Shown here in pieces: positions 11,827 through 47,340 of a stretch of 64,000 nt of DNA. The notes beneath the pieces were generated by a model. The model saw only the letters and a program-made list of their open reading frames with translations, was not told the origin of the DNA and searched no databases. Both the position numbers and the translations under genes were made by a program. Source of the stretch: Hemerocallis citrina (taxonomy: Eukaryota > Streptophyta > Magnoliopsida > Asparagales > Asphodelaceae); NCBI GenBank assembly GCA_017893485.1, contig CM030363.1, positions 84,063,230 to 84,127,229 on the forward strand. The letters run 5' to 3'. Numbering within the stretch: position 1 is the first letter of the stretch; each line of letters begins with the position of its first letter.

Positions 11827-12110
11827 ACAGTCTACCGAATAGGCATAGATAGTCGACTGTCCTGGATATCTAGTTCTTCGAGTTGTAATTCTCGCAGAAC
11901 AGTCGACCGTATATGTTTAATAGTCGACTGTCCCGTCCATTTTATTTTCGAGTTTTAAAGCACCGCAGAACAACCGACTGGTCTTGTTTAACAGTCGACT
12001 GTCCTGATCATTTTCATTTCGAGTTTTTAAATCTTTACAGAACAGCCGACTGGCCAAGTTTAACAGTCGACTGTCCAGACTATTTTGATTTCTCAGGGTT
12101 TAAATTGTCT
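11827..12110. repeat. 71-bp tandem repeat x4 with paired AGTCGACT palindromes
   Basis: Four units of 71-72 bp, each with two AGTCGACT-type cores. Core centres are at 11832/11854, 11904/11925, 11975/11996 and 12047/12068, spacing 22, 21, 21, 21. The second core (AGTCGACTGTCC) is perfect in all four units; the first is degenerate (AGTCTACC, AGTCGACC, AACCGACT, AGCCGACT). A frame across 11913-12125 is a by-product of the repeat. Confidence 0.85.
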
Positions 12111-13660
12111 CTTGATAAAAAATAAATGTACTGTTTAAAAGGGTTTGAAAAGTGTAATGCCCTGATTTTTCATTAATGAAAAATTATTTTATTTTGCACT
12201 TAGTGTGCATGTGCAATATTTTTGGTTGAATTAAATCTTATAATTATTTTTCATTGTGATGGGTATAAATATTTAAATTTGTGCTTTCAAATTATTTTAT
12301 ACAAAAGCCTTCTTTTAAATGGATGAAAAGCCCTTTCTTTTAAAAAGCCTTTTCTTTTAAAAAGCCCAAAATATAATTCATTTATTTTATTTTATAATAA
12401 TTATTTTGGCCCATAAATTAAAGCCCGTGGAATATTTTTATACAACTTGTCATGTAGAATACAATTTAAAGACTATTTTATTTTTATACAAAAATTTAAT
12501 GTACAACTTTTGGACCTAGTTGCATGCACGTGCATTGCACGTACACGTGCAAAATGCACTCTTCTCTAGGCCGGTTGTGGTTCTTTTGGAGGAAAATCAA
12601 ATTTTGTAATGGTGATCATGGTGTGGTGGTTACTAGGTTGTGGGTAGTTAATGTAACTCCTACTTTCATCCTAGCCCTCCATCTTACAACCAACCAATTG
12701 ATCCTAGCTCTCCATTCTCTTTGATTTTTAGTGTAAATACCCCCCCCGGCTAGTTATTCTTGTGTAAAATTATTCTCTTCCAAATCTATTGTCTAAATTA
12801 TATTTGTGTGAGTTAAAAGATTGAGTTGTGTGTGGGAGTTGTGCTTGCATTCAAGAAGGAGAGAAGGCCGGCTATCAAAGGGAAGGAGCTCTCGGTTTTT
12901 GGAGTGCTTGGAGGCTTGTGCGCGCGTGTACAAGGAGGAAAAGCATTTCGTTGCAAGAACTTTCGTCTAGGAGGCTGCTAGTAGTGTTTGTTCTCTCCAA
13001 ATTAAGGTGGGTAAAATTTTCTATATTCTAACTAGGGATGCATGCTAGATTAAATTGAATGAATGAGGCATGAGAAATATTAATAAGAGTACTCTTTTAA
13101 TTGGACATTGACCTATGAATTGATTGGAATGTGGGTGTGCAAATTGTATGTGATTTGAGTAGTAAAAATCTAAGTTGTATGGATTAATTATGACTATGTT
13201 TTGTTAAAGAAGGTCTCATTATCTACACCACAATTATATATACAAAGTTAGTAGATTGACAATACTACTTCATGTGAATAAATAGATCTTTTGTGTTAAT
13301 ATGGGCATGAAGAAATTAAAATATAAGTTTGTATGTTGGATAAATGATTAAGGACAGAGAATTAATATGAAATTGGTTGATAAAGAGATTAGAATGCTAA
13401 TTGCTAAGAAATGTCGAAAAGAGAAGAAAATGTGGTAGGGATAGTTCATATTTCGAATTAATGGTATGAAAATATGTTTTAATTGTTAAAAAAATTATTT
13501 TTTCATACTGATATGTAAATTAGACAAGAAATAATTAATCTGGAGTTGTACAGTAATTTTTATGAAAACAAAATGAAATGGGGACTAGTTGAACATCGAA
13601 ACGTTTTAATAACAGAGAAAATGGTTTTAAAAAGAATTTCGAATTACTACTCGACAACCT

Positions 13661-13733
13661 GAGCGCGTAGCTCAATTGGTCGGAGTGCGCGGCCTGTTTC
13701 TTAGAGGTCACGGGTTCGAATTCCCTCAGTTAC
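13661..13733 (+). other. tRNA-like sequence 1 in S2
   Basis: Box A-like TAGCTCAATTGG (13668-13679) and box B-like GGTTCGAATTCC (13713-13724) are 45 bp apart, as in a tRNA gene. The acceptor and T stems are imperfect and there is no clear anticodon arm, so this looks like a tRNA-derived or tRNA-mimicking module and not a working tRNA gene. Confidence 0.55.
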
Positions 13734-13817
13734 ATACTTTGCATTTTTTTTGAGAAAAAAAAGGATTAAAGTGTGCGGCCGAGAGTATTTATTACTCTCA
13801 GCGTCCTTTATACCGTC

Positions 13818-13893
13818 TAGCACCTTGGCCTAGTGGTCTGTGCCTTGGCCGCTGTTCCTGGGGTGCTGGGTTCGAATCTTGCCATCGGCAGGA
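13818..13893 (+). other. tRNA-like sequence 2 in S2
   Basis: Box A TGGCCTAGTGG (13826-13836) fits the pol III consensus well, and GGTTCGAATCTT (13869-13880) is a near box B, 43 bp downstream. It lies about 157 bp from the first tRNA-like module. Pairing is too poor to call a tRNA gene. Confidence 0.55.
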
Positions 13894-16663
13894 TTGAAAA
13901 TTTTATTTTTTTGAATGTTTCGGTGGCAAAAAAATTATGGAAAAAATATGACTATTCTCCTAAAAATATATGGGACTTTATAAAAATAATTTGGGAATTA
14001 TTTGCATGAAATACACTATGATTTGATACTAAAATGCATAAATAGAACTATGGTTCTATATGTATACTTTGTGAAAATTATACCTTGCAAAAAGAATTTG
14101 AAATGAAGGATTAGAAGATTAATATAGTCGAGAAAGAAATTTTATTTTGTGATGGTTATGAATTATTCTCATATGTGAATAGTGCGAAAAATATTAAATG
14201 TGAATATTCGTAGTGAAGTGAAATTTTGATGTGAAGTTGATAATCGATAAAGCATATGAATTTCATGTATAGTTATGGACTATTTGAACGAATTAGAAAT
14301 CATGATTTGAAAAGAAATATACTTTTGAGTATGATGACTCAATATGGAAATTTATGAATTGGAAATGCTCATTTTGGAAATTGTGAATTGAAAATCGAAA
14401 CAAAAGAGTAGCTAAGTCTCCCCCGTCATTTGGAAATAAATGAAATGATAATTTGAAATGAAAGACCAAGGTTGGTCATGTTTGAATGAATGAATAAGTC
14501 CGGTTTAGTGGAAAGGCTAACTCTAGAGATTTGATTTTTGTTCATGATTTTGATAAAAACTAAGGATTAGTACATAGTAGAGACGTGATGAAAGTAGGAG
14601 AAAAACACGAGTATGAGGGCCATCGGATTAGCGGTGTGAGAGTGATCCACAGGCTGCCTGCTTGATGCGTCAAGACATGGCGTGGGCACTACTCCAGAAT
14701 TATCGTCCCTGTGGCGATGCTTGTGGGATGTTCGAGTGGCTATAGGTGGTGCCATTGTTCCATGGCGGAGGCTGAATTGTCCATAGGTTTCCTGCTCGAT
14801 GCGTCGTGTCAGTGCGTGGGATTCCCCTCCAGGCTGCCTGGATATGGGCTCGTAGATCATAGGACATCTAAGATACCTACCGTAGTTACAGTAGTAGATT
14901 AAGTCATGGCGAGGGATTGAACCCTACAAAGATGAAGAACGATTAAGGGCTTGCCCTCGGACCTATGTAGTATGGGATGCATAGAATCCGAACAAGTGCG
15001 CATTAGTATCATGTAATATAAATAAATGCATTAAGGACTAAGTGCACAATCACAACACAAAATCAATAGGGTAGTCCCTTTAGTTTGAAATGTGACAAGT
15101 TTGTGTTTGCTAAATATGGAAAATTAAGTTATAATATTTCCGGCATAGAGAGGATGGCCGTGTATAATGATCGTCGATTGAATAAACTGACGTACCCACA
15201 GTCTTATATGCAGGTAAATGGCTTGATACAGATTAAACAGGAACAAATGCTTAAAGATTACTCAATGTTGTTGTACATTTGTTTCATTGTTGTAAATTTT
15301 ACTTCCGCTGTGCAATGTAAAGTGTAATATTGATGTAAACTCTGATGTAAAGTGAAAAGTTTAAATTTCCTTGTAAAATTGTACTAAAGGAAGCGAAAAG
15401 ATCTTGTAGAACATCTCGAATTCAGTGTATTTGGGATTCGGGGCGTTACAAAAAGAGGTTTGATAATGGAAAGAATGAAGATTGAATGTGACCAATTAGG
15501 GAAAAGTGAATTTATTTGTCTTATGCATGAAAATTGTACATGAAAGTGAGGTTAAATATCCTAATGAATTATGAAAGGTTTTATGAATATGAATACACAA
15601 ATGCTATGGACATGAAATGTGATTTTGAACTAGATGGTAGCTAAGTCCTATTACCGGCAAGTGAATAAATTATATTTTTTTAGATGAATAATTGAGATGA
15701 AAGACCAGGTTGGTCATATTGTTGATTGAGACCGGTATAGAGGAAAGAGCTAACTCTAGGGGTTGATTTTATTTATGATTCAAATAAACTAAGGATTTAG
15801 ACACATAGTGGTGATATGACGAAAGTGAGAGAAAAACACGAGTATGAAGGCCATCGGATTGGCGGTGTGAGAGTGATTCACAGACTGTCTGCTTGATGAG
15901 TCATGACATGGTGTGAGCACTACTCCGGAATTATCATCCCGGTGGCGACGCTTGTAGGGTGTTTGGTGACTACGGGTGGTGCCATCGTTACATGGCGGAG
16001 GTCGAATTGTCCATAGAATGCCTGCTTGATGCGTCATGTCAGTGCGTGGGATTCCCCTCCAGACTGCCTAGACTTGGGCTCGTAGATAATAGAACATCTA
16101 GGATACTTATCGTAGTTACCATAGTAGTTTAAGTCACGGTGAGGGATTGAACCCTATAAATGAAGTACGATTAAGGACGTGCCCTCAGACCTATGTAATA
16201 TGGGATGCATAGAATTCGAACAAGTGCGCATTAGTGTCATATAACATAACAACTGCATTAAGGACTAAGTGCATGCACAGCACAACACGACATCAATAGG
16301 ATAGTCCCTTTTAGTTTTGTTTGTGAACAAGTTTGTGGTTTGCTAAGTATTGAGAATCGTTATACTATTTCCGACATAGAGAAGATGGCCGTGTATAATA
16401 TTTCGTCAGTAAATGAACTGACGCGCCCACAGTTTTACAAACAGGGTAAAAGGTGCTTGACAAACTGAAGTATACATGCTGCTCAAAGATTGATTCAATT
16501 GTTGTTTCATGCAATTACTGTAAATTTGCTTCTGCTGCACGAATGTTAATGTATAATGTATCTCTGATGTAACATAATGTTTCAATTTCCTTAAAGAAGT
16601 GTAAAGATCCTGTGGAACTTCGAATTCAGTTGCATTTTTGGGAATTTAGGGTGTTACAGTTGG

Positions 16664-16960: not shown

Positions 16961-17142
16961 GTGGCTGATGAACACATTATTATTCACTTTTTAGAGCAAT
17001 AATCTTAATAGAATTAGACATTTAAAAGCTCTATATATGGTATTTAACTCTTATTTTCTCTTTTCCATAGGAAACAGCTTATAACAGCAAAACGAAGCAG
17101 ATTTAGGACTTCAAGGATAATACACAGCAAACTGCAGAGGAT

Positions 17143-17304
17143 CAGTCGACTGGTTCCCCAACACAGGCGACTGGACAGGAGAAGCTGATTTTCCACAATT
17201 CTCGACACAGTCGACTCACTCCCAAGAGCAGTCGACTGGCCTGATCACAGATGAAATCTACATAAGTCTCGACTCAGTCGACTGGTTCGAAGATAAGTCG
17301 ACTG
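17143..17304. repeat. Three AGTCGACT pairs in Athila 5' LTR
   Basis: Core centres are at 17147/17168, 17212/17233 and 17279/17299. Within-pair spacing is 21, 21, 20; pair-to-pair spacing is 65 and 67. The same array is at 25526-25687 in the 3' LTR. Confidence 0.9.
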
Positions 17305-17713
17305 GTCTGCGGCGGAGTAAACAGATAAGATATTCGAAGATACACCTGAATCTGATTTCAAATCTATTTGAATCAAGATTTTATGCAGCGAATCAAATCT
17401 AAAGACAGGGTATTTTCCAAGTGGACGTGGTGAATAGATAAGGAAAGAAAGGAGAAAAGAGAAAGATATTAATCATCAAATCAAATAAAGAAGGATCTTC
17501 CTGAAAAAAAAGTGAAAACCCTAATTCTCAGCCGTGTTCTATAAATATCAGAATACCATCTCCAGAACACCTCTCCGCTCTCCACTCCACGACTTCATCC
17601 AATAATCAGATATATCTCGGGGAAGCGACTCAATCACCAAGTTCCTGAAAAACATCGAGAGCATCACTCCATCAACATCGAAAAAGGAGAGAGAAGATCC
17701 AGCAACCAGAAGG

Positions 17714-18013
17714 CAGTCGACTGTGTGACAGCCAGTCGACCATATTGCCGGAATCCATTAGTTTATTCCTTCTTCTCTCTTTATTCTTTTTATGTTGATC
17801 ATGTATTCAAACTTGTTAAGCAATAAAGTTATTATTATGTGGAACTAATTTCATAGTTGGGTAGATCGAAACCGTAGTTATGTAGTGCTATATTCTTCTG
17901 AGATCTTCTGATTACTTATTGATTGAATCTGGTTGAATTGACATAGATTGATGATCATCAAACTTGATCTCGAAGTCTGAGAGCAGTCGACTGAGGTGAG
18001 AGCCAGTCGACTG
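17714..18013. repeat. Two further AGTCGACT pairs in Athila 5' LTR
   Basis: Core centres are at 17718/17737 (spacing 19) and 17988/18008 (spacing 20), both downstream of the TATA box. The counterparts in the 3' LTR are at 26097-26396. Confidence 0.9.
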
Positions 18014-18677
18014 ACATACAGCACGTGAGAATATCAAGTTTATGTTATCATTTATCTAAATCTGTTATATGAAGCATATTGAGACGACCGAATCTCGTGC
18101 TCATAATTTGTAACAAAAGAATCTTTAGGGGTTCTTGGTTCAATCAACTTAGAGGATCTAGATCTGATACCAATTTCTAGAACTTTAAGTGTTTGTTCGT
18201 TTCCACTGTTCTGATGTTTTCTCTAAGTATAACTTAGTAGATACCCTGCTAGATACTTACGGAAAGAAACGAATTAGAGTAGATACCATGCCTAATTCTT
18301 GGCTTAGGGAAACATTACTTTAAGGAGTAGATACCATGCCCTTGAAGTGAACAAACATGAGTAATTAGAAGTAAGTTCAGAAGGTAGCTTAGCATTATTA
18401 ACTATTGGTGGAGATCAACAACCCAACTATTCAAGAGATATTTGTGATTCAACACCTCTCATCTTAGTTTTAATCTTTTAGTTCTTTTAGATCTTTACAA
18501 CAACCCTTATTCATTCTTATTATTAGTTTTATTGATTAGTAAGTTGAAGTCTACAATCTCTGTGGGATCGACCCTTGCTATTACTACGATTCGATTCCTG
18601 CACTTGCGAGGTTTTTTTATAATTTGTGTCTAGTTTATCTATTAATTAGGTAGCTAGATTTCCAACAAACAAGTTTT

Positions 18678-18696: not shown

Positions 18697-18797
18697 TGTT
18701 TAGTATTTTAACTTACAAGTCAGTAGATTTTTTTTTTTTATTAGTTTTTCTTTTCTTTTATTAATAATTTTTCTTTTAGGTTACAGGACTTTGGTGA

Positions 18798-21700
18798 ATG
18801 CGCGGTAGACGATCACTTCGTCCAGAGCTACTACCTATTGACGCAGAAACAGAACGAACTTTGCACAGACTAGGTAAGCTGTTTTTAGCCAACCAGTCGA
18901 CTGCTATACTGACCCAGTCGACTGCACAGAGACAAATCTCACAGGAAAGAATGGCTGAAGAAATACACAATCGAGTACCAATGCAGGACAAATTCACTCC
19001 TAAGAATATTGAGCAACCTTCCTGCATTGCTTTTCAACCTAATGCTACAGGGAACATGCACCTATCTCCTCATTTACTTAGTATGGTTCCCCACTTTAGT
19101 GGCAAACCAGATGAAGAGCCTCATCTTCACCTGCAAGACTTTTTCGATCTTTGCAGGACACAAAGCGTCCAAGGGCTTACTGCTGAACAAATCAGGTTAA
19201 TCTTGTTTCCTTTTTCTTTAAAACTTAATGCTAAGTTGTGGTATAATTCTTTGGAACCAGGATCAATTAATTCATGGGAGCAATTGGCAACGAAATTTTT
19301 GAAAGAGTTCTTTCCAGCCCAGAAAACCAAACAGCTAAAAAGGGAGATTCAACTCTTCCAACAAAAAGATGGAGATCTATTCTTCGAAGCATGGAAGGAT
19401 TTCAAGAGCAAGCTTCTCAAGTGTCCTACTCACAATCTGCCTAAGGATGATCAGGTACAAGCTTTTTATGAAGGTTTAAATGACACTAACAAGGCAATTG
19501 TTGATGCAGCTTGCAATGGAATTTTGATGAGGAAAAGTGGAGAAGAAGCCATTGAACTTTTTGAAGAACTCAGTGAGAACTCCCAACAATTCTCAACAAG
19601 AAGGGGACCTACGAAAAAACAGGGAGTTTACGAGATCTCTAATAATAATAACATTCAATTAGAAATGGCAAACATGAATAAAAAAATTGATATGCTTGTT
19701 AATGCAATGTCGACAATGGGTGGAGTTAAAAATCAAACAAATGAAATGTGTGCAATTTGTTCACATTTAGATCACACAACTGATACATGTCCCATGTCTA
19801 CTTTTACAGATCAGGAGCATGCAAACTATGTGGGTCGAGGAGTATTTCCACCAAAGAACAATCCATACTCGAACACATATAACCCAGGATGGAGGAATCA
19901 TCCAAACTTCTCATGGAGCAATAATCAAAATAATCAAGGGAATCAATTCACACAAGGACATACAAGGAACCCTCAGATGGGAAGTGGGTTTGAAAGACCA
20001 GCTCCAGAACAGAAGAAGTTGGATTTTGAAACCACTGTTCTTCAATTGCTCCAACAACAACATCAAACAAGCAACCAACAAGGACAAGCAATTCAGAAGT
20101 TAGAAACCCAAATTGGTCAGATTGCAAAAGAGCTGAGCGAAAGAAAGACAGGTGAACTCCCTTCACAAACCATACCAAATCCGGGAGGCCAAGAACAACT
20201 CCAAGCAGTGACTACTTTAAGAAATGGTAAGATAATTGACAACAAGGTTGGAAAACACACAGACAAACCAGTCGACTGTTTTTACAAACCAGTCGACTGC
20301 ACAGGCAATTCAGAAACACAACTACCAAAGGCTGTGGATTCCAATAAGGTAAGTAAAAAAATAGGGACAGTTCCACCACCATTCCCTCAAAGGTTAGTCA
20401 ATAAAAAGAAAGAACAACATTTATTTGACGTCTTTGAAACTCTCAAAAAGGTAGAAATTAATATCCCCCTACTTGACGCTATTAAACAAATTCCTTCTTA
20501 TGCCAAATTTTTGAAAGGCTGTTGTACTCACAAAAGAACATTTCAGGTTAAGGAGGATGTGGCTTTGACAGAAGAAGTGAGCGCTGTATTATTAAGAAAA
20601 CTACCACCTAAACTGAAAGATCCAGGTAGTTTCACCATTCCTTGCAGGGTTGGTGAGCACTTCTTTGAAAAAGCACTGTTAGACTTGGGGGCAAGCATCA
20701 ACCTTCTTCCTTACTCGGTTTACGAGAAGCTTGGATTGGGGGAACTCAAGCCAACATCCATCACTTTGCAATTGGCTGATCGCAGCATAAAAAGACCTAG
20801 AGGTATTTTAGAAGATGTCCTAGTTCAGGTGAATGATTTTATTTTGCCTGCTGATTTTGTGGTGTTAGATATGGAGGAATCTTCAATGTCATCATCTCTA
20901 CCGATCATATTAGGTAGGCCCTTTATGAGTACAGCTGATATAAAAATTTGTGTTAAAAAGGGTATTATAAGTATGAAGATAAACGGAGAAAAAGTGGAAT
21001 TTAAAATGTTTGATACACTGAAATTACCACAAGATGATCATGAATGCTATAATATTGATGTGGTGCAGGAGATTGTTGATCAAACATTTCAGGTACATAG
21101 CGTTGAACCACTACAAGCCACAATCACTCAATCTCTAACTTTATCTCATGTTGAACAGGAATACGATGACTGGGAGATAGCAGAGACAGTACATCACCTT
21201 GAAACTCCACAGTCATGTTCAGGTAAGCCTGCACCTTTATTTGAAAACTTTGTGTCTGATAATCTTTGTTTTTCTACAGATCAGGCGCCTGGTGCACAGA
21301 GCAAGTCGACTGGTATTCTAACCAGTCAACCGAATCAAGACACCCAGACCAAGTCGACTGCTGTCATGGACCAGTCGACTGTACAGAAGCTTCCAGATAT
21401 AGAACTCAAGCAGTTGCCCGACCATTTGAAGCATGCATTTTTGGGCGAGAACCAGACACTGCCGGTGATAATTGCTGCTAACTTAAGTGCACAGGAAGAA
21501 TATAAGTTGCTGAAGGTATTGCGAGAACACAAAAATGCAATAGGATGGACCATTGCAGACATCAAGGGAATAAGTCCATCCAAATGCATGCATAGAATAC
21601 TCCTGGAGAACGATGCAAAACCTAGCAGAGAGGCACAGAGAAGGCTCAACCCCAACATGAAGGAAGTGGTAAGAGCAGAAATTTTGAAGCTACTAGATGT

Positions 21701-24359
21701 TGGCATCATCTATCCTATCTCAGATAGCAAATGGGTAAGTCCTATACATGTAGTTCCTAAGAAAAGTGGAGTTACAGTGGTAACAAATGAAGAGAATGAA
21801 CTTATCCCAACAAGAGTAACCACAGGTTGGAGGGTATGCATTGATTATAGGAAACTGAACAATGAAACCAGGAAAGATCACTTCTCTCTTCCTTTTATTG
21901 ATCAAATGTTAGAAAGATTAGCAGGATATAGTCATTATTGTTTTCTAGATGGTTATAGTGGCTATAATCAAATTGCTATTGCTCCAGAAGATCAAGAAAA
22001 GACCACTTTTACATGCCCTTTTGGTACTTTTGCTTACAGGAGGATGCCCTTTGGATTGTGCAATGCTCCAGCTACATTTCAAAGATGCATGATGAGCATA
22101 TTTTCAGACATGGTGGAGAGGTTCATCGAGGTATTTATGGATGATTTTAGTGTTTTTGGATCTTGTTTTGATGAATGCCTTAACCATTTGCAGCTTGTGC
22201 TTAAAAGATGTGAAGAATGCAATTTAGTGCTGAATTGGGAAAAGTGCCATTTCATGGTACAACAAGGTATTGTTTTGGGGCATGTTGTTTCAAAAAGAGG
22301 AATAGAGGTAGACAAGGCAAAAATTGACATCATATCAAAACTACCCCCTCCCACTACAGTTAAGGGTGTTAGGAGTTTTCTAGGACACGCAGGGTTTTAT
22401 AGACGATTTATAAAAGACTTTTCAAAAATCTCCAAACCCCTTTGTGACTTGTTAGCCAAGGATGTTGAGTTTATATGGACTAAGGAATGTACAAATGCTT
22501 TTAATACATTGAAAACTCTTCTCATTTCTGCACCTATTGTCATGGCACCAGATTGGAGCCATCCTTTTGAGCTCATGTGTGATGCAAGTGATTATGCCTT
22601 AGGGGCTGTTTTAGGCCAAAGAATCAATAAGAAACCCCATGTTATTTACTATGCATCTCGAACTCTAAACGATGCACAGCTAAATTATTCCACTACAGAA
22701 AAAGAAATGTTGGCTGTTATATTTGCTGTAGAGAAGTTTAGATCATATTTAATTGGTTCTAAAGTTATTGTTTTCACTGACCATGCTGCTTTGAGATATT
22801 TGTTGGCTAAAAAGGAAGCTAAGCCCAGGTTAATCAGATGGGTGCTGTTGCTTCAAGAATTCGATCTTGAGATTAGAGACAAGAAAGGATGCGACAATGT
22901 TGTGGCAGATCACATGTCCAGATTACTGCACGAGGACGAAAGAAATGTGCCCCCGCTGAATGAAAATTTTCCAGATGAACAACTATTTGAAATAAATGTC
23001 CAAACTCTCGGGGCAGTCGACTGGTCCTTCAACCAGTCGACTGAACTCTCTGAACAGTTCCCCTGGTTTGCTGATATTGTAAATTTTCTAACTGCTCATG
23101 TTTTTCCTCCAGGTATGACACATCAGGAAAGGAAAAGATTGGTGGATCTGAGCAAACACTATTATTGGGATGATCCTTATTTATTCAAATTTTGCTCTGA
23201 TCAAATTATAAGAAGATGTGTGGCAGACGAGGAACAAAGGAGTATTCTACAACATTGCCACCAATATGCATGTGGAGGACATTTTAGGCCAAAGAGAACA
23301 GCACTTAAGGTATTGCAATCTGGTTTTTATTGGCCTAAAGTATTCAAAGATGCTTTTTCTTTTTGCAGGACTTGCGACAAATGCCAAAGGACAGGCAACA
23401 TCTCTTCTAGAAACCAAATGCCACTACACAACATACAAGTAATCGAGCTTTTCGATGTTTGGGGAATCGACTTCATGGGTCCATTTCCTAACTCATTTGG
23501 TTATTTATATATACTTGTTGGTGTGGATTATGTGTCTAAATGGGTCGAGGCTGTCCCCTCACGAACTAATGATCACAAAGTTGTTGTCAAGTTTTTGCAG
23601 GAGAACATTTTCACTAGGTTTGGTACACCACGAGCAATAATAAGTGATGGAGGGAGCCACTTCAATAACTACCCATTTGCTTCTTTGATGAAGAAATATG
23701 GGATTACACATAGAGTGGGAACTCCATATCATCCTCAAACCAGTGGGCAGGTGGAGATTAGCAACAGAGAGATTAAGAGCATCTTGGAAAAGACAGTCAA
23801 CACAAGGAGGAAGGATTGGTCGCTACGCTTGAACGATGCATTATGGGCTTACAGAACCGCTTTCAAGACACCCATTGGCATGTCACCATACTGTTTGGTC
23901 TTTGGAAAAGCATGTCATCTGCCGGTAGAGTTGGAACACAAGGCGTATTGGGCCATTAAAAAGTTCAATTTTGATATGAAACAGGCAGGTGACAAAAGGA
24001 GATTGCAACTAAATGAGCTTGAAGAATTGAGGCACGATGCATATGAAAATGCCAAGCTATACAAGGAAAGGACTAAGTTATACCATGATAAACAATTAGC
24101 AAGGAAGGAGTTTTATGAAGGACAAAAGGTATTGATCTACAACTCAAGATTAAGACTCTTTCCAGGCAAGCTCAAGTCAAGATGGTATGGACCATATATT
24201 GTCACAAAAGTCTTTCCACATGGTGCATTGGAAGTTCACAGCGAAGAACGAAATCAAACATTCAAGGTGAACGGACACAGAGCGAAGCCATACATAGAGA
24301 TGAGTCTAGAACCGCAAGAGGAAGATGTGAATCTTCAAACCATTCAATACGTTGCATGA
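18798..24359 (+). CDS. Athila Gag-Pol polyprotein, intact, 1853 aa
   Basis: Single frame from the first ATG after the primer site. Gag core lies about residues 90-260 ([15 protein letters not shown]), with a zinc knuckle [14 protein letters not shown] near 317-330. Protease has the Athila-type D-L-G-A-S site near 630 ([14 protein letters not shown]). RT spans about 1010-1180, with FMDDFSVFG near 1115. RNase H starts near 1260 ([14 protein letters not shown]). Integrase has the HHCC zinc region ([10 protein letters not shown] ... CDKCQ, near 1486-1530) and the catalytic D,D,E in WGIDFMG (about 1556), ISDGGSHF (about 1617) and [10 protein letters not shown] (about 1652), then a C-terminal tail. 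All catalytic residues are present, with no stop. AGTCGACT pairs are embedded near residues 33, 491, 835, 852 and 1406, all between domains. Readthrough or frameshift is not needed. Confidence 0.95.
18893..18924. repeat. AGTCGACT pair in Athila gag N-terminus
   Basis: Core centres 18898 and 18919, spacing 21, both read as Q-S-T in the N-terminal tail before the Gag core. Confidence 0.88.
20268..20300. repeat. AGTCGACT pair between gag and protease
   Basis: Core centres 20273 and 20294, spacing 21, both read as P-V-D-C. The frame differs from the pair near 18898. It lies between the zinc knuckle and protease. Confidence 0.88.
21302..21381. repeat. Two AGTCGACT pairs between protease and RT
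   Basis: Core centres 21307/21327 (second copy mutated to AGTCAACC, spacing 20) and 21355/21376 (spacing 21). They are read as K-S-T, T-S-Q-P, K-S-T and Q-S-T in the linker before RT. Confidence 0.88.
23013..23043. repeat. AGTCGACT pair between RNase H and integrase
   Basis: Core centres 23018 and 23038, spacing 20, so the two copies are read in different frames (A-V-D-W and N-Q-S-T). Confidence 0.88.
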
Positions 24360-25348: not shown

Positions 25349-27054
25349 TGATGAACACATTATTATTCACTTTTTAGAGCAATAATCTTAATAGAATTAG
25401 ACATTTAAAAGCTCTATATATGGTATTTAACTCTTATTTTCTCTTTTCCATAGGAAACAGCTTATAACAGCAAAACGAAGCAGATTTAGGACTTCAAGGA
25501 TAATACACAGCAAACTGCAGAGGATCAGTCGACTGGTTCCCCAACACAGGCGACTGGACAGGAGAAGCTGATTTTCCACAATTCTCGACACAGTCGACTC
25601 ACTCCCAAGAGCAGTCGACTGGCCTGATCACAGATGAAATCTACATAAGTCTCGACTCAGTCGACTGGTTCGAAGATAAGTCGACTGGTCTGCGGCGGAG
25701 TAAACAGATAAGATATTCGAAGATACACCTGAATCTGATTTCAAATCTATTTGAATCAAGATTTTATGCAGCGAATCAAATCTAAAGACAGGGTATTTTC
25801 CAAGTGGACGTGGTGAATAGATAAGGAAAGAAAGGAGAAAAGAGAAAGATATTAATCATCAAATCAAATAAAGAAGGATCTTCCTGAAAAAAAAGTGAAA
25901 ACCTTAATTCTCAGCCGTGTTCTATAAATATCAGAATACCATCTCCAGAACACCTCTCCGCTCTCCACTCCACGACTTCATCCAATAATCAGATATATCT
26001 CGGGGAAGCGACTCAATCACCAAGTTCCTGAAAAACATCGAGAGCATCACTCCATCAACATCGAAAAAGGAGAGAGAAGATCTAGCAACCAGAAGGCAGT
26101 CGACTGTGTGACAGCCAGTCGACCATATTGCCGGAATCCATTAGTTTATTCCTTCTTCTCTCTTTATTCTTTTTATGTTGATCATGTATTCAAACTTGTT
26201 AAGCAATAAAGTTATTATTATGTGGAACTAATTTCATAGTTGGGTAGATCGAAACCGTAGTTATGTAGTGCTATATTCTTCTGAGATCTTCTGATTACTT
26301 ATTGATTGAATCTGGTTGAATTGACATAGATTGATGATCATCAAACTTGATCTCGAAGTCTGAGAGCAGTCGACTGAGGTGAGAGCCAGTCGACTGACAT
26401 ACAGCACGTGAGAATATCAAGTTTATGTTATCATTTATCTAAATCTGTTATATGAAGCATATTGAGACGACCGAATCTCGTGCTCATAATTTGTAACAAA
26501 AGAATCTTTAGGGGTTCTTGGTTCAATCAACTTAGAGGATCTAGATCTGATACCAATTTCTAGAACTTTAAGTGTTTGTTCGTTTCCACTGTTCTGATGT
26601 TTTCTCTAAGTATAACTTAGTAGATACCCTGCTAGATACTTACGGAAAGAAACGAATTAGAGTAGATACCATGCCTAATTCTTGGCTTAGGGAAACATTA
26701 CTTTAAGGAGTAGATACCATGCCCTTGAAGTGAACAAACATGAGTAATTAGAAGTAAGTTCAGAAGGTAGCTTAGCATTATTAACTATTGGTGGAGATCA
26801 ACAACCCAACTATTCAAGAGATATTTGTGATTCAACACCTCTCATCTTAGTTTTAATCTTTTAGTTCTTTTAGATCTTTACAACAACCCTTATTCATTCT
26901 TATTATTAGTTTTATTGATTAGTAAGTTGAAGTCTACAATCTCTGTGGGATCGACCCTTGCTATTACTACGATTCGATTCGTGCACTTGCGAGGTTTTTT
27001 TATAATTTGTGTCTAGTTTATCTATTAATTAGGTAGCTAGATTTCCAACAAACA
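25349..27054 (+). repeat. Athila 3' LTR
   Basis: 1706 bp, the same length as the left LTR and differing at three positions that I saw. It carries the same five palindrome pairs at an offset of 8383 bp. Confidence 0.95.
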
Positions 27055-32169: not shown

Positions 32170-32174
32170 TTACC

Positions 32175-34166: not shown

Positions 34167-34757
34167 TGATATGGCCAAAATTGGGGTTAAATCGAGACCG
34201 TCCAGATCGATCACGAATCCTGAAGCACGGGGGTAAAAAGGTAATTTCACATACAGATGAATCCAAAACGGGTATTGGGCCTCCTTCTCGCAGAACCAAC
34301 CACCCGTGAATAGATCCACTTCATTTGGGTACGGGTCCCGACCCGATACAAGCCCAATCCACCAAGAAGAGAATCAGGCCACTGATTTGGTCAAATCAAC
34401 AAACCTGATCAGCTCTCACCAGGGAATCAAGGCCTAACTTCCCAAAACAGAATAGGAGGATTTTTCTCCTATTTGTTAGGCAGGAAATTGGGCCCCAAAT
34501 CATTCCAAAGGCGACTATAAATACAACCCCTCTACCACCGAGACCAGGTTAATCACTTTTTCACCACTTAAGCTCTTTCTTAATCTTTTCCTGATTACTG
34601 ACAAGAGCGTCGGAGGGTGCGTCGCCGGAATCAACCCCGGTGTTTCGCACTTCCTTGCAGGTTGTGCCAGGAGCAAGAAGACCGAGTCAATCGTTCAGGT
34701 GTTTCCCGGACTCACAAATTCTATCTGTTTACCCCCACACCGAAATCAGCGGTAACA
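34167..34757 (+). repeat. T2 5' LTR
   Basis: 591 bp, TGATATGGCC to GCGGTAACA, TATA box TATAAATA at 34516-34523. Confidence 0.95.
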
Positions 34758-34760
34758 GAT

Positions 34761-34778
34761 TGGCGCCGTCTGTGGGAA
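34761..34778 (+). promoter_or_regulatory. T2 primer binding site
   Basis: TGGCGCCGTCTGTGGGAA three bases after the LTR. Its first ten bases fit the 3' end of plant tRNA-Asp; the rest departs from it. This form is common in Tat elements. Confidence 0.8.
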
Positions 34779-34826
34779 ACCACCACACGAACGACCTCAG
34801 CTTCTCCTTCATCGCCTCCCATCGCC

Positions 34827-39983: not shown

Positions 39984-40768
39984 GCGTCAGTCGGACTCCG
40001 CCTGGTCGGTAGCGGGCGCGTCGCGAGTTCATAAAACGTGATCCCCCTCTCACTTTCCTCGCGAGTGCACGACGTGCTACGAACATTAGCCCTCTCCGGC
40101 GCAGGTTTAAGCGACGCGATCTCCTCCTCCAGTTCGATAATCCGATCCCTCAGGACGACGTCCTTCGCCAATTTCTTTGATCGAGGGGCCTTCAACGACC
40201 CGGAGGCATTGGGACTATCAGTTGCAAGCCGCCGATAGTGGGTGACCTCGATCCCCCTATCTACTGTGATCCTCCTGAGCATGTCGACTTCGGCCAATAG
40301 TCTCTTACGCTCAGCCAAAGCCCCCTCCAGCTCGGAGGCCATCTTCTCCCTTTCCGCAGAGCGCTCTCTCTCCGATAGCTCCAAGTGTTGTACCTCGCCC
40401 AAAAGGTCGTCGTTCTTCTGCTCGGCGGCTTTAAGCTCCCCGCGAAGCCGCTCAACTTCCCCTTCGGAACCAGGACCCAAGGAGCGCTTCCGGAGTTGAT
40501 GCAGCTCGCGACAGTTCCTCCTCAGGACTGCCCTGACCTCCTCCGCCTGGCCGAGCAGGAGAAACCGCCTCTGCCGGCTGTCCGAGAGTTCACGCTTCAA
40601 GTTGGCCAATTCCTTCCGAAGGAAGACCAGCTCCGTGACCAGACCAAACACCACCTGAAAAGCGGAAATAAATCCGAGGCCCAACAGTTGGAGAAATTTA
40701 CGCCCAAAACGCCCAAAATGCACACTAAGTCCGAGGCTCAACACTTGGACAAATTTTTGGCCAAACAA
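39743..40768 (-). CDS. T2 antisense gene 2: coiled-coil protein, fused to antisense integrase
   Basis: The minus-strand frame has heptad-rich sequence (LRKELANLKRELSDSRQR, KMASELEGALAERKRLLAEV, RDRIIELEEEIASL), so it is mainly coiled coil. An acceptor-like TTTTCAG|GTGG ends at 40655, suggesting the exon starts at 40654; the ATG at 40768 may not be used. The last 50 or so residues (below about 39905) are antisense to the integrase fragment and are probably an accidental fusion made by the deletion that truncated pol. Function unknown. It may be a downstream exon of antisense gene 1. Confidence 0.6.
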   Translation of the reverse strand: MFGQKFVQVLSLGLSVHFGRFGRKFLQLLGLGFISAFQVVFGLVTELVFLRKELANLKRELSDSRQRRFLLLGQAEEVRAVLRRNCRELHQLRKRSLGPGSEGEVERLRGELKAAEQKNDDLLGEVQHLELSERERSAEREKMASELEGALAERKRLLAEVDMLRRITVDRGIEVTHYRRLATDSPNASGSLKAPRSKKLAKDVVLRDRIIELEEEIASLKPAPERANVRSTSCTREESERGITFYELATRPLPTRRSPTDAQSSAAVSSSGASVGAAVRTSSEGGSSHRVRNAEPVNWVPLSVTRTRGTPNLHIMFFQKNCTTLFSVIVARGSASTHFEK

Positions 40769-40867
40769 AATACTTTTTCATTCAAAACAAGGGCGGTGGC
40801 CAGTCCGCGATAAGGCTTACAAAAAGAAAACAAAACCAAAAAGACTGAAAGTAGGAAGACAACCGAG

Positions 40868-43274
40868 TCAGGGGTCGACCTTTTTGCCGCTCGGATTCGT
40901 CGACCCCTCGGCCTTGCCGTCGCCGTCACCCTCGTCCCCGCCTTCGCTCCAGCTCTCCTCCTCGGAGAGTTCCTCCTCCTCGCCCTCGGCTTCGGTCTCA
41001 CCATCGCCTTCGGCGGGTTCTGTCTCACCATCGGGTCCGAGCAAACCCTCGGTGATCCCTTCTTCCCCCTCCACGGGCTCGTAAAAGTCATAGGAGGACG
41101 AGTCGAAGCCGGGGTTCTTCGCGGCTACATGGGTCAGGGCACGGCCGTAGGCGTCCAGCATATTCTGGATCATGTGCTGCGCGGCCTCCTCTTGCACGGC
41201 CTTCTTCACCTCCTTCACCTTCCTCAGGTGGTTGGCCTTGATCCTCTCGGCTCTCTTCCGAGCAGCCTCCCCTTCCGACCGAGCCTTGGCCAGCTCATCC
41301 TTCAGCCCGGTGACCTCCTTCTCGGCTCCCGACCGAGCGCTGGCCAGCTCCTCCTTCAGCTCGGCCACCTCCTTCTCAAACTTGGCCGCCGTATCCTTCG
41401 ACGATTGGATAGCGTCGGCCAGCTTCTTCTCCAGGTCCTCCGCTTCGGCGACTCTCTTCGTCGAAAGAAGCAGCTCGGACTCAAGCCGCTTCGCCACCCG
41501 AACGCGCTCCGTCCTCTCCTTCTCCTTCTCCTGATCCTTCTTCGCCATCTCCTCGACCAGCCAACTGAAGTGGCAGAGGGTCTGGAAGGAAACAACGCGT
41601 TAAAATCCGAGCCCAAGAACTTAGAAAGAAAATCTCCATGAAAAATATGAATGAAGAAGGGTTCGACACACTCACCGACATAGTGCTCCGGGCCATCTGC
41701 ATCACGTTGTCCCCTGCCATCCCGGCCCTCAGGGTCGCCCGGTCCTTCGGGGTCGGCAGGTGCCTCACTGCCTCCATGCAGATGTTCCCGTCGCCCAAAA
41801 AGCCGTCGACGTTCATCACCTGCCAATCCGGGACGAAGATCTGTTTATGACGCTCGGTCAAGATCTTCTCCGCGCCGGGGGTGAGTGGCGGAACCTGGAG
41901 GGACAGCGCATCGGCCACTCCGAACTCATTGCTCGACGGACCAGGAGCGTCCGCCTCCGGGGTAGGAGCAGGAGCGCCCGTTGCCGAAGGATCGAGGTCC
42001 ACGACCCCACCCTGCTCGGGGACCGCGGCCTTTGCCGAAGGGACAATGACCTCAACCTCTCCCTCCTTCAGGACCGCAACCTTCGGTTGATCGGCTGCCT
42101 TCACTACCGAGGCCTTCTTCGAAGCTCGGCTGTCCTGAGGCGCTGCCGACGGCCTCTTCTTCTTCTCCTGCTCGGACCTGCCCTTCGCCACCAGGGCCTT
42201 GTAATCGAGCTTCATGGTCTCTGCAAGAATCGAACGAAAAAACTTAGAAAAATTGAATGCAAACTTTACGGAGAGAAGTATAAATACCAGAAGCGTACGA
42301 GGGTCGATCGGACTGAGACCCCCACGGAACAGATGCTCTTCGGTGATATCCTTCCAGCTAAGCGTCGGCAGAGCAAGGATCTTCTTCTGGACCTCGGTCT
42401 CTGCCGCGTTCAGCGGAACGTCCTTCTTTGTGCGCTTGGGTAGTCCGTCCGCCCAAACTGTCGGTATCACCCATGGCGTCAGTTTCCGAACGAGGAAGTA
42501 TTTGTCCTTCCAGTGTTTGATCGAGTCTGGATTCTCGATCAGTTTCACGCTCGGCCGGGGCGAAAGATAAAACCTCTTCTCGTCTTTCCTCGGCTGGACG
42601 GGTCGGAAGAGACTCCGAAAGAGGTACATGGTCGGCTTGGCGCCGATCTCTTGGCATCGGAGGAGGAACGCCACAACTTGCCTCCATGTGTTCGGCATCA
42701 GTTGAGCGGGACTTAGACCATACCAAACCAGGACCTCAACCACGAACGGGTGGAGGGGAAAGCGAAGACCGGCAATGAGGGAGTCGACCGGAAAGACGCA
42801 CATGTCCGGAGAGGACCCAGTGTTGGCTCGGAACCCCGGCCCAGGGAGGAGCAACGTGTACTCGAGAGAGATCTGGAAGCCCTCTCGGATCAGACGAAGG
42901 TCCCCTTCGGTAAGAGTCGAGATCTTGCGATCGACCTCGGATAGCTCCCTAGGCTCGTTCTCCTCCACCAGTTTAGCCGTACCTTGGGTGACCTTCTCCA
43001 AGATATCCTCAGCATAATCCCGGACTCCTCCCACGCTCGACACGGCGATGGGCTGCCGACCGAACTCCCCCGCTCTCTTCGGCGTCTCCACTATAGTAAT
43101 TACGGCTTTGCCCTTTCGGGACTCCGCCGTGACTTCTTGGGGCACCTCAGCCACTCCGCCCTCCGCGTCTGGACGAACAACGACCTGCTCGCTCAGCTCC
43201 ACTACTCCTTTCTCTTTCTCCCCTCGGCCAACGGCTTGCTCCGAGGCGGGGGTCTCAACCGAAATCTTAACCAT
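40868..43274 (-). CDS. T2 antisense gene 1: Transposase_28-type protein, two exons
   Basis: Exon 1 runs from ATG 43274 to 41676 (533 codons) and exon 2 from 41581 to the stop at 40868. They are joined by a 94-bp intron with donor TCG|GTGAGT and acceptor TTCCAG|ACC; splicing keeps frame and gives about 770 residues. Residues about 145-215 (LLPGPGFRANTGSS, VLVWYGLSPAQLMPNTWRQV) match the 'putative gypsy type transposon' domain (PF04195) found in extra ORFs of Tat elements. The C-terminal half is coiled coil (ELKEELASARSGAEKEV) with an acidic tail (EGEEEELSEEESW). Known: Tat elements can carry antisense extra ORFs between pol and the 3' LTR, of unknown role. Transcription would oppose pol. Confidence 0.8.
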
Positions 43275-43283
43275 ATTTTCCTA

Positions 43284-45829
43284 AAGAGAGAAGGGAAGGA
43301 GACTGACCTTGAATTGACAGCTACGGTCGGAAACTTCGCCGGAACTAGGAACGCTACCGCGACAGCTAGCGACACCACCAGGGAGCTAAAGACTTCGAAG
43401 CAAAGTAAATACGAAAGAGAGAGAGTAAAAGTGAAAAGTGAAGACTTGGTCAAAGGGGGGGGTAAAGATTTATAGTGAAAATGAGGCGCCTCTTGGACTT
43501 CCAGAGCGACTTTTGGGCTACTCTCGAAGCATCTCGAAGGCCCACCACAAAGTCAACCAGCTCGGCGAGATGGGACGAGAATCCGAGCTGCGAGCAAAAC
43601 CGAACGTGGCTGCAATAGAGTCCGCTCGGAATCCGTGCAAGTGCCTTCCCGAACTGGTAAATGGGGAAAACTCCTTTCCCCCTCAAATTCCGCGCCTGAT
43701 CTTCATCAGACGGTCCAGATCTCGCCAAGAGCACTAAACGACAAGATAGTGTCTTCTTGGAGAACGCGCCCCATCTCGAGATGCGTGTCAGCATCCGGCG
43801 GCTCAGATAGCGCCACGTCGCTCGGACGATCGGACGCCTCGCCTATGCATGAAAGAACCTGGAAAATTTTTGATTATGTTTTAAGGCGCCGCCCTCGGCA
43901 GGCGCCCCCCGGGTCCCGTGCCTCGGTTGGTATAACCCCGACAACAGGCCCCGGTCAGAAGCAGATCAGAAGCAGATCGGCACTCCCCCACCTCTAACTC
44001 CCCCGGGCTGACCTCCGTCAAAAGCCATCAGCCCGAGAAGGAAGACAAAGATGGGAGGGAACCCACCAACACTCAGAGGTCGGAAGAGACGCACCATCCC
44101 GAGCTAGTTGGTTGCAACTGGAAGGCTCGGCTTGTCGAAAGACTCTAACAGCGGCGCCTTCACAGTTGCAACAAACGGACTCAGATGGCCCGGAGATCGA
44201 CATCAGACAGGGGTCGTCACTCTCCCACCAAGATCTCTGCCTACTTCAACACTCACTTCGGAGCAACCGAAGAAGGCAGAAGATCTTGGTGAGAGAACGG
44301 CGACCCGTCCTTCGAAAGAGGTCCGCACCCCGGGTCCGGACCATGGCCGTCGACGCCACTGTCTTGTTGCCCCCACCCCTCACACCCCTTCGGAGCAGGG
44401 AGGGATGGGGAAACAACAAGACAGCGGGGCGACCGCCCGTCCTTCCGGGAAGGCCCATCCCTCGGATCCGGACTACGGTCGTCACCACTCTTGCCTTATT
44501 CTCCTCCGCTCCCGACACCCACTTAGGGACCGTCCGGAACGGGAGAAGAATAAGGTAAGAGAGCGACCACCCGTCCTTCGGAGATAACTCATCCCCCGAG
44601 TGCGGACTACGGTCGTCACCACTACTGCCTCGTTCCCCCTCGCTCCTGACATCCACTTTGGGGCCGTCAGGAACAAAGGGAAAACCAGGCAGAAGAGCAA
44701 CCACCACTCCGAACTTCAAGAGAGAAGCTACCCAAGGCAGATGCCTCCGAGGTCTGGAACCCAATTTGGTTGTGACGAAAATGACAAAAGGGATGGGGTA
44801 CTTATAGCCTGCCCCCTATAACCAGCCATTACTACCCTCGGAAATTGAAGCGCCGCGTTTTAATTGAGGGAATTATTGATCCCCGGAAGTCGGAACGCCA
44901 CGCATTAATCAAAGGAGTTATTCTTAATGGCCTGGGGAAGAGGAATGCAGCACAAACCCCGAGCGCCATTAATACCCTCGGAAGCGAGATCGCCTCCGAA
45001 CAGATAGCGCCGCGAGATCGCCTTCGGTCGGCTGCCGAGCAGAGGCCTTCCCGAACTGGTAAATGGAGAAAAAAAGGCACCGAGCTACCTCAGCCGTCGG
45101 ATCTCTCAGAAATTCGCGCTCCCAATGGCGAACGGCTCAGATTACGCCACGTGCGCTAGAAGACAAGATAGCGTTTTCTTGGGAACCGTTCCCGTCTCGA
45201 GATGCGTGCCCACATCCAACGGCCCAGATTACGCCACGTCACTCAAGCCCTCGGTCGGCTGCCGAACCCCCATCCCTTCGGTCGGCTGCCGCGCAGAGGT
45301 CTTCCCGAACTGGTAAACGGAGAAAAACGCTGCCGAGCAGCAGCGACCGTCAGATCTTTCCGAAATTCGCGCCCTTCCGCAATCAAGGGCCCAGATTGAG
45401 CCACGTCATAAATCGGTATTTAAATCATTTTTTATCTATTTAATTTGTTTTATTTGCTTAAAAATTGCGAGAAAATTGTTAAAAATTCGGGAAAATTAGC
45501 CAAAAATTCTGGAGAGTAATTGAGATTTAGGGGGCACATTTTCGAACCCTTGAACGAACAATTATCGCCCAGAATGTACGGCTAAGGCCCCCGTATGATT
45601 AACAAACGCGTCGCAAAGTTAAACAAATAGTCCGAAAAAAATAGATAAAAACTCTTGAAACCCGATGTCACCAGAGAACCGCCAGCGGCGTCAAAAGTTG
45701 CCTCACTACCCCCCTTTCCAGATTCAAAATCCCACGTCTGGACTCCGATACAACTCCATCAGCCACTAAAAACAGCTAAACTACTCCTCAAAGTCTGATC
45801 ACACTCAGTCTTTAGGAGTGGGGGGCTCG
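43284..45829 (+). other. T2 GC-rich 3' noncoding region with repeats
   Basis: No believable gene. A 132-134-bp unit is repeated three to four times between about 44230 and 44720 (cccgtccttc at about 44303, 44437 and 44570). The phrase gaactggtaaa recurs near 43655, 45053 and 45308. 45405-45530 is AT-rich as in T1. The 5' part (43284-43450) would hold the promoter and leader of antisense gene 1. A polypurine tract, GGAGTGGGGGGCTCG, is at 45815-45829. Confidence 0.6.
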
Positions 45830-46420
45830 TGATATGGCCAAAATTGGGGTTAAATCGAGACCGTCCAGATCGATCACGAATCCTGAAGCACGGGGGTAAA
45901 AAGGTAATTTCACATACAGATGAATCCAAAACGGGTATTGGGCCTCCTTCTCGCAGAACCAACCACCCGTGAATAGATCCACTTCATTTGGGTACGGGTC
46001 CCGACCCGATACAAGCCCAATCCACCAAGAAGAGAATCAGGCCACTGATTTGGTCAAATCAACAAACCTGATCAGCTCTCACCAGGGAATCAAGGCCTAA
46101 CTTCCCAAAACAGAATAGGAGGATTTTTCTCCTATTTGTTAGGCAGGAAATTGGGCCCCAAATCATTCCAAAGGCGACTATAAATACAACCCCTCTACCA
46201 CCGAGACCAGGTTAATCACTTTTTCACCACTTAAGCTCTTTCTTAATCTTTTCCTGATTACTGACAAGAGCGTCGGAGGGTGCGTCGCCGGAATCAACCC
46301 CGGTGTTTCGCACTTCCTTGCAGGTTGTGCCAGGAGCAAGAAGACCGAGTCAATCGTTCAGGTGTTTCCCGGACTCACAAATTCTATCTGTTTACCCCCA
46401 CACCGAAATCAGCGGTAACA
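45830..46420 (+). repeat. T2 3' LTR
   Basis: 591 bp; no difference from 34167-34757 was seen. Target copy aggat follows at 46421-46425. Confidence 0.95.
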
Positions 46421-47024
46421 AGGATTCTTGGATCTAGCAAAAGGAGGAAGCTTTTTGTGGATTTTTCTTCGAATCAAAGGTGAGTGGTTTTGTTTTGCTT
46501 TGCTTTGTTTTGTTTGTCTTGATTGATGAATGACGTAAGATCTTGTTATGCTTGTTTGTGTTCATTATGTCATTATTTTGTTAGTCTCATTGTATGTATG
46601 ATATGGATCTATTAGTTGATATGGAGGATGAGAACTCTTATTGATATTGGGATCATGTATGAGAAATATTAAGATTTGTCGAGGAAATGTGGAATTATGA
46701 GATCGTATTGTTGGGAGACATATTAAGAATTTATTGTGTTATGATCAGATAATAAACATCTGGATCTCATGATTGTAGTTCAGATTTTATGATAGTGTTG
46801 TGAAAGAAGTTTGATGAGAAAAACCCTAATAGAAAGATTAAGAGTTTGGATCATGAGGATAGGAGATTTGAGTATTTGATTGATTGAATAATGTATCCAT
46901 GATAGAGATATTTGAGAGTTGTTCATTTGCCTGGATACAAATTAATTTTTGGGATCGTTGGATCTTTGGAAAGACTCCAGTTTAGTTTTGTGTTCAGACC
47001 TATCTTTTGGGAATCTGTAGCCGA

Positions 47025-47340
47025 CAGCCGACTGTCTTGCGAAGCAGTCGACTGGTACGAGCCTACTGTGTATTTTTGAGTCTTGAGATTTGTTCGGGAC
47101 AGTCGACCTAGACTGAGGTCAGTTGACTGATCCTCTGTTTGTGATTTTGTTCAGTCCTTTCGGGACAGTCGACCTAGACTGAGGTCAATCGACTGGTCCT
47201 CTGTTTGTGATTTTGTTCAGTTCTTTCGGGACGGTCGACTGATGACTTGTCAAGTCGACTGTTCATGCCTTAGATTATTTTTTAAAATGTTGGGTTATGT
47301 CCTCTGGACAGTCGACTGGTCCTTTATGCAGTCGATTGGT
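47025..47340. repeat. S3 array of five AGTCGACT pairs at exactly 20 bp
   Basis: Core centres are at 47029/47049, 47104/47124, 47170/47190, 47236/47256 and 47313/47333. Every pair is spaced 20; successive pairs are 75, 66, 66 and 77 bp apart. Some cores are degenerate (AGCCGACT, AGTTGACT, AATCGACT, GGTCGACT, AGTCGATT), yet spacing is kept. Confidence 0.88.

What the first reader, a model, noticed from the sequence alone, without database searches (positions are those of the whole stretch)
11827..47340. Paired AGTCGACT palindromes with two-turn spacing in three different retrotransposons
About 24 pairs of AGTCGACT-type cores occur in Athila (5 per LTR, 5 in the coding region), in solo LTR S1 (4) and in solo LTR S3 (5). 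Centre-to-centre spacing is 19-22 bp in all, and exactly 20 bp in all five S3 pairs. Pairs recur at 65-77 bp in all three LTR types (65/67 in Athila, 71-72 in S1, 66-77 in S3). An 8-bp palindrome should occur about once in 65 kb by chance. Spacing is kept even where a core has mutated. I know of no described element with this design. Possibilities include a cooperative DNA-binding site on one helix face, an RNA kissing-loop or dimerisation/packaging site (GUCGAC is self-complementary), or a site copied between families.
Basis: partly seen in the sequence, partly recalled or inferred. Interest (0 to 1): 0.92.

Follow-up and report, generated by a model that had tools for sequence, protein, structure and literature searches.

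The report
Paired palindrome sites shared by retrotransposons
Several unrelated families of jumping genes in one large plant genome carry the same paired eight-letter DNA word, two turns of the helix apart and strongly conserved, which looks like a shared docking site for a protein that has yet to be identified.

Summary
In the 3.78-Gb genome holding this window, exact AGTCGACT pairs number 106,585 at 20 bp, 70,258 at 21 and 27,293 at 22, but 6,334 at 19 and 1,567 at 23; the reversed-motif control gives 0-3. Nearly every core is paired (12 of 13 in a random 200-kb sample). Carriers include two Ty3 lineages, probably a Tat-like one, and two Copia elements. Between diverged copies the cores stay 91-100% identical while bases within 25 bp fall to 55-87%, in LTRs of two families; in coding linkers the cores are also kept, in different reading frames. 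The arms of a pair do not co-vary and a non-palindromic variant is itself conserved, so an RNA hairpin is unlikely. I read the pair as a cooperative, same-helix-face binding site for a trans-acting protein that helps elements be transcribed or escape silencing. The protein is unknown. Closest known kinds: palindromic repeated-motif boxes of Sirevirus LTRs and VANC target arrays. Fixed pairing, spread over superfamilies and coding placement make it a new variant. S1's four pairs are one duplicated unit.

The parts
11829..12072 (.). S1 array: four pairs at 11829, 11901, 11972, 12044 (spacings 22, 21, 21, 21) riding on a 71-72 bp tandem repeat
16966..18671 (+). 5' LTR of the Athila-type (Ty3) element
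   Evidence: 99.8% identical to 25349-27054 over 1706 bp
17144..17303 (.). Three-pair array in 5' LTR: 17144-17172, 17209-17237, 17276-17303; second core of the first pair is the conserved variant AGGCGACT
17715..17741 (.). Pair, 19 bp spacing, 5' LTR
17985..18012 (.). Pair, 20 bp spacing, 5' LTR
18798..24356 (+). Uninterrupted gag-PR-RT-RNaseH-IN ORF that contains the coding-region pairs
18895..18923 (.). Pair (21 bp) in the gag N-terminal linker, read as QST/QST; relative L029 keeps both cores although its second core is read in another frame
20270..20298 (.). Pair (21 bp) in the gag-protease linker, read as PVD/PVD
21283..21331 (.). Degenerate cluster AGGCGCCT / AGTCGACT / AGTCAACC in the protease-RT linker
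21352..21380 (.). Pair (21 bp) in the protease-RT linker; homologous linker in L029 and L030 has four cores at 21 bp
23015..23042 (.). Pair (20 bp) in the RNaseH-integrase linker, its two cores in different reading frames (VD / QST)
25349..27054 (+). 3' LTR with the same five pairs (25527-25555, 25592-25620, 25659-25686, 26098-26124, 26368-26395)
47026..47337 (.). S3 array: pairs at 47026, 47101, 47167, 47233, 47310, all 20 bp; LTR-like sequence related to the L034 Ty3 family (73%)

Best explanation
Each pair is a DNA-level binding site for a sequence-specific protein supplied in trans. A dimer sits on each palindrome (extended core about MAGTCGACTK), and two such dimers, 20-22 bp (two helical turns) apart, lie on one face of the helix and bind cooperatively. 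An optional extra half-site (CMGA, 4-7 bp outside the core) is often present on one side. Arrays of 2-5 pairs in the LTR, often upstream of a TATA-like box, plus a few pairs tucked into the linkers of the polyprotein, recruit the protein along the element. They either switch on LTR transcription (favoured) or keep the element from being silenced. Ty3 and Copia families in this host converge on, and sometimes exchange, the same site because they use the same protein. Shown: the pairs, spacing, distribution and conservation of the cores. Inferred: protein binding, cooperativity and benefit to transcription.
For: Genome counts 106,585 / 70,258 / 27,293 at 20 / 21 / 22 bp against 6,334 at 19 and 1,567 at 23, controls 0-3. 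12 of 13 exact cores in random sequence are paired. LTR footprint with core columns defined by a third sequence: cores 96-100% against 55-87% within 25 bp in 27 of 30 Athila-LTR comparisons (26 of these at p<=0.02, one at 0.06), and 91-97% against 57-68% in 3 of 3 comparisons of a second Ty3 family. Coding linker of L029/L030: cores 32/32, spacers 23/39, rest 435/518. Of 9 exact cores in the window ORF, 6 are read as xST and 3 as xVD; in L029 one core survives a -1/+1 frame change. Arms vary independently: complementarity is no higher within pairs than between them; CxGA occurs right in 19, left in 22 and on both sides in 3 of 65. G at position 2 changed in 1 of 36 one-mismatch partners. An array lies upstream of a TATAWA word in 4 of 6 elements of known sense. 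Two different Copia elements have cores just upstream of RT. 0 of 86 homologous Copia linkers in other records show the paired peptide signature.
Against: No protein, binding, expression or methylation data. In 2 of 6 elements (L034, L035) no TATAWA word lies downstream of the array; two of the 4 that have one are of the same lineage, and no chance control was run for TATAWA. Coding-region pairs are not what a simple U3 enhancer needs. Distances between neighbouring pairs (44-51 and 56-59 bp are commonest; L001-L008 left out) are not whole helical turns. CxGA is on both sides in only 3 of 65 pairs, fewer than independence would give. Nearly identical LTR copies (L030a against L030b, 3 of 30 comparisons) show no core excess, and the 30 comparisons share sequences. 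In one search the cores were defined in the sequences compared, which favours them; avoid this. Detailed tests lean on 16 loci fetched because they hold a pair (L001-L008, L029-L036) and the window; only L009-L028 are random.
Confidence: 0.62

Rival explanations
1. Anti-silencing operator: the protein removes or blocks DNA methylation over the whole element, as VANC does for VANDAL transposons, so sites must be spread through LTR and body.
For: Sites run through the whole window element (LTR, gag N-terminus, 20.3, 21.3, 23.0 kb, LTR). 21-bp tandem expansion in the protease-RT linker of L029/L030 resembles the tandem growth of VANC targets (PMC5735166, passages). VANC6 motifs also occur in a TE unrelated to VANDAL (same passages).
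Against: No methylation data. Only gag/pol domains were recognised in the carriers' ORFs that were scanned (10 of the 40 listed; the window's Athila-type ORF), so a TE-encoded factor was not found, though most ORFs were not scanned. VANC sites are described in non-coding regions, these also in coding DNA.
Confidence: 0.22
2. RNA-level structure: the two palindromic cores form a hairpin or a kissing loop used for RNA dimerisation, packaging or siRNA production.
For: Cores are self-complementary, so an exact pair can fold. In maize Sireviruses palindrome-rich LTR regions are sRNA mapping hotspots (PMC5311732, passages).
Against: No covariation of arms, 0 of 6 double mutants compensated, a core that is not self-complementary conserved in all five aligned Athila LTRs, and a narrow spacing of two DNA turns where a loop would tolerate more.
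Confidence: 0.06
3. Spread by copying: a pre-existing array was exchanged between element families and amplified, with no current function.
For: Copia L032 and Ty3 L035 share two pair units in the same order (35/37, 37/42). S1 is a tandem repeat. L026, L031, L034, S3 and L035 arrays match each other at 67-79% over 100 bp and more. Spacer and right flank of a pair are slightly more alike than shuffled ones (0.306 against 0.281, p 0.055).
Against: Cores stay while spacers diverge, which neutral copies would not do. 71 distinct spacers fall into 52 dissimilar groups.
Confidence: 0.07
4. Protein-level constraint: xST or VD repeats in linkers are selected for the peptide and the DNA word follows.
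For: All 4 cores of the L032 linker and 6 of 9 exact cores in the window ORF are read as xST. 4 of 120 gag homologs have [QKE]ST at a 7-residue period, in a Q-rich stretch.
Against: The same DNA word is conserved in non-coding LTRs; 3 of 9 cores in the window ORF are read as xVD, and one in L029 as SRL.
Confidence: 0.02

Closest known systems
Repeated palindromic motif (RM) boxes of Sirevirus (Ty1/copia) LTRs, PMC2829016
   Same: Palindromic short boxes, 8-32 copies per element, clustered in the LTR upstream of a TATA region; in env-bearing elements more copies inside the element; the Vitis box is CGGTCGACCG, which shares the GTCGAC centre (section 9 and passages read)
   Different: RM has a CGG-CCG signature (one exception) and is reported only in Sireviruses. 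Here the word is AGTCGACT, comes in 20-22 bp pairs, occurs in Ty3 lineages and in Copia elements at once, and sits in gag-pol coding linkers
VANC target motifs of VANDAL transposons in Arabidopsis, PMC5735166
   Same: Short motif accumulated in arrays within TEs, shared with an unrelated TE (passages)
   Different: Non-coding regions of VANDAL elements; motif YAGTATTAY or AGTTGTCC; TE-encoded VANC known. Here no such protein was seen in the ORFs scanned
LTR promoter boxes of single families (Tnt1 BII boxes, PMC3316501 passages; ONSEN heat-response element and EVADE W-boxes, review PMC12786077 passages)
   Same: Sites for DNA-binding factors in the LTR that drive transcription
   Different: Known per family. 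Here one paired site is found in families of two superfamilies and also inside genes

Membership tests
Sirevirus RM boxes | Carrier is a Sirevirus (Ty1/copia) | tested here: not met
   Window and L034 carriers have Ty3 order, RT before integrase parts; Copia carrier L032 has hits named 'copia LTR rider' and TNT 1-94. Lineage of Copia L036 not determined
Sirevirus RM boxes | CGG-CCG palindromic core | tested here: not met
   Core is AGTCGACT flanked by G or T, no CGG-CCG
Sirevirus RM boxes | Clustered palindromes in the LTR upstream of TATA | tested here: inconclusive
   4 of 6 elements of known sense, no chance control
VANC-type anti-silencing targets | Motif arrays in TE grown by tandem duplication | tested here: inconclusive
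   S1 and the L029/L030 linker are tandem; Tandem Repeats Finder lists no array at 17144-17303
VANC-type anti-silencing targets | TE-encoded VANC-like protein that binds the motif and causes loss of methylation | not testable with these tools
   No binding or methylation data; the carriers' ORFs scanned, a part of those listed, showed only gag/pol domains
LTR promoter boxes (Tnt1, ONSEN kind) | Sites bound by a host factor and needed for LTR transcription | not testable with these tools
   Position in the LTR shown; binding and activity not testable
RNA hairpin / kissing loop | Compensatory change between arms | tested here: not met
   permutation p 0.92; 0 of 6 compensated

The most novel reading that the evidence does not exclude
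In this plant lineage one trans-acting DNA-binding protein, encoded by the host or by a transposon, serves as a common operator-binding activator or anti-silencer for retrotransposons of both the Ty3 and Copia superfamilies. They converged on, and traded, a two-turn paired palindrome: a transposon regulon with more than 200,000 exact operator pairs in one genome.
Probability: 0.4. Interest if true: 0.9.

Novelty: new variant of a known kind. Interest (0 to 1): 0.76.

Why it matters
The cis-regulatory words of plant retrotransposons that I found described are family by family. A single, geometrically precise operator conserved in unrelated Ty3 and Copia families, in coding as well as LTR DNA, would mean that many transposons of a large genome depend on one protein. 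Finding and removing that protein would test directly whether transposon bursts and genome size depend on shared trans factors, and would give a sequence-specific handle on transposon expression or methylation.

Tried and rejected
Chance or composition: rejected. RNA hairpin: rejected as main reading. Pure tandem duplication: true for S1 and likely in part for the L026/L031/L034 arrays; no tandem array was listed at the Athila LTR array. Protein-level constraint: rejected. A mobile 28-bp unit of fixed sequence: rejected, spacers are dissimilar. A TE-encoded binding protein: Pfam scan of 7 of 41 window ORFs and 10 of 40 ORFs listed (none from L031) gave gag/pol domains and, in the window, a CACTA transposase; the rest was not scanned. 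Organism name: not established. Genome-wide count of single cores, of gaps 0-30, of 18-bp pairs, and a TGTCGACA pair control: not obtained, the server stayed busy. Literature: the plain motif search counted 711 papers, 20 listed, none on plant retrotransposons by title; searches list part of what they found and show no title on paired AGTCGACT sites; (retrotransposon, GTCGAC, Athila) found 0. Most subscription papers are not in that library. Bousios et al. 2016 (Genome Research) was seen only as a reference in PMC5311732; of PMC10398659 only the abstract and outline.

Full report
What was checked. The 24 pairs are real. The window lies at G000:C6:84063230-84127229 of an unnamed 3.78-Gb genome in 701 contigs; that it is a plant follows from its retrotransposons and their homologs. 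Exact AGTCGACT pairs in the whole genome number 6,334 at 19 bp, 106,585 at 20, 70,258 at 21, 27,293 at 22 and 1,567 at 23, 212,037 in all. The control that the tool runs, the motif read backwards, gave 2, 0, 3, 1 and 0. Base composition predicts about 0.65 per spacing. The 18-bp count did not complete. Among 52 spacer groups from loci in hand, searched from 18 to 24 bp, none was 18, 23 or 24.

Cores come in pairs. In 20 random 10-kb stretches there are 13 exact cores, all in 2 of 20 stretches, against a mean of 2.2 for the 96 eight-base palindromes of the same composition. 12 of the 13 have a partner with <=2 mismatches at 19-22 bp, against 1 of 13 at 13-16 bp. The figures are 32 of 32 in the window and 150 of 153 in L029-L036, which were chosen because they hold pairs. 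Partner cores with one mismatch change at positions 1, 3 and 4 of the half-site but at G2 in only 1 of 36.

Who carries them. The window element is Ty3-type, RT before integrase, with an Asp-type primer-site match. L029, L030 and L033 are relatives. L034 is a second Ty3 lineage with an RVP_2 protease and a CCHC gag. S3 and L026 match its LTR at 73-74% and each other at 67%; S3 has 40 scored matches of >=90%, its own included, some 7.6 kb apart on one strand. L035 showed only a gag in the one ORF scanned. L014 has a Tat-like ORF and, further down, an S1-like array (75% over 105 bp); that both belong to one element was not shown, and the label Tat is mine, from recall. L032 and L036 are Copia elements. 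A second Ty3 element of the window (34167-46420) has no pair, so this is a property of some families only.

Conservation of the cores. Core columns were defined in a third sequence and two others were compared. For five Athila-type LTRs the cores are 96-100% identical and the bases within 25 bp 55-87% in 27 of 30 comparisons; the other 3 are one nearly identical couple without any excess. For S3, L034 and L026 the figures are 91-97% and 57-68% in 3 of 3. In the protease-RT coding linker of L029 and L030, cores are 32/32, spacers 23/39 and the rest 435/518; the window against either has cores 30/32 and spacers 23/39 or 16/39. There the cores were defined in the sequences compared. In the gag N-terminal linker L029 has lost one base between the cores and gained one after them; both cores are intact though the second is read in another frame. 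The comparisons share sequences and are not independent.

DNA, not RNA or protein. Over 65 pairs (157 before similar ones were dropped) the flanks of one pair are no more complementary to each other than flanks of different pairs (p 0.92), and 0 of 6 pairs with two mutated cores are compensated. An outer CxGA half-site is present right in 19, left in 22 and on both sides in 3 of 65. AGGCGACT, which is not self-complementary, is present in all five aligned Athila LTRs. The same word is read as xST, xVD or SRL in coding DNA. Spacer and right flank are only marginally alike (0.306 against 0.281, p 0.055).

Position and history. A TATAWA word lies 63, 125, 174 and 244 bp downstream of the last core of the upstream cluster in L032, L036, L030a and the window LTR; L034 and L035 have none downstream; L031, of unknown sense, was left out of this count. 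Two different Copia elements have cores just upstream of RT: L032 between its SH3-like and RT domains, L036 in the short ORF before its RT ORF. Among homologs of the L032 protein, 0 of 86 with both flanks present show the paired [QKE]ST signature, and 6 of 120 have a single one, L032 having four. For the window's gag, 4 of 120 homologs have [QKE]ST at period 7, in a Q-rich stretch; their DNA was not seen. L032 (Copia) and L035 (Ty3) share two pair units in the same order, 35/37 and 37/42, which suggests exchange between superfamilies. S1 is a 71-72 bp tandem repeat.

Mechanism. Two turns between palindromes, conserved cores, variable spacers and independent arms fit two protein dimers on one face of the helix (inference). 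Because the cores are kept within element lineages, the site most likely helps the element (inference). A transcription-activator site is favoured because of LTR position; an anti-silencing site is the main rival because pairs also run through the body.

Known relatives. Sirevirus repeated-motif boxes (PMC2829016, section 9 read and passages) are the nearest kind; VANC targets (PMC5735166, passages) the nearest mechanism for the rival. Neither, in the parts read, has the fixed two-turn pairing or the spread over both superfamilies. I saw no title on paired AGTCGACT sites in the listings, which show only part of what was found; one search found none.

Noticed in passing
window 27825-29454: Tandem array with a 115-117 bp unit, about 0.8 kb downstream of the Athila-type 3' LTR.
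   Followed up: no
window 57093-62580: CACTA-type transposase ORFs (Transposase_21, Transpos_assoc) lie between two blocks of roughly 245-bp tandem repeats that are up to 98% alike.
   Followed up: no
window 34167-46420: A second Ty3 element with identical 591-bp terminal matches and a 1507-codon ORF carries no AGTCGACT pair, an internal negative control.
   Followed up: partly
window 14445-16592: A direct repeat of about 0.93 kb, 81% identical, copies 1.2 kb apart, between S1 and the Athila-type element.
   Followed up: no
L030 1-10000: Several Athila-type LTR stretches in a row (183-1819, 3106-4722, 4723-6317, 9477-10000), the middle two directly abutting at 95.6% identity.
   Followed up: no
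L029 3089-4756 against window 16966-18671: The LTR is a mosaic: 94% identical over window-LTR positions 699-1703 but 82% over 1-588, where the pair array lies; the array half may have been swapped.
   Followed up: no
L036 (reverse strand, positions 1121-1199 of the reverse complement): The Copia LTR has a second pair cluster shortly before the primer site, besides the one upstream of TATA.
   Followed up: no
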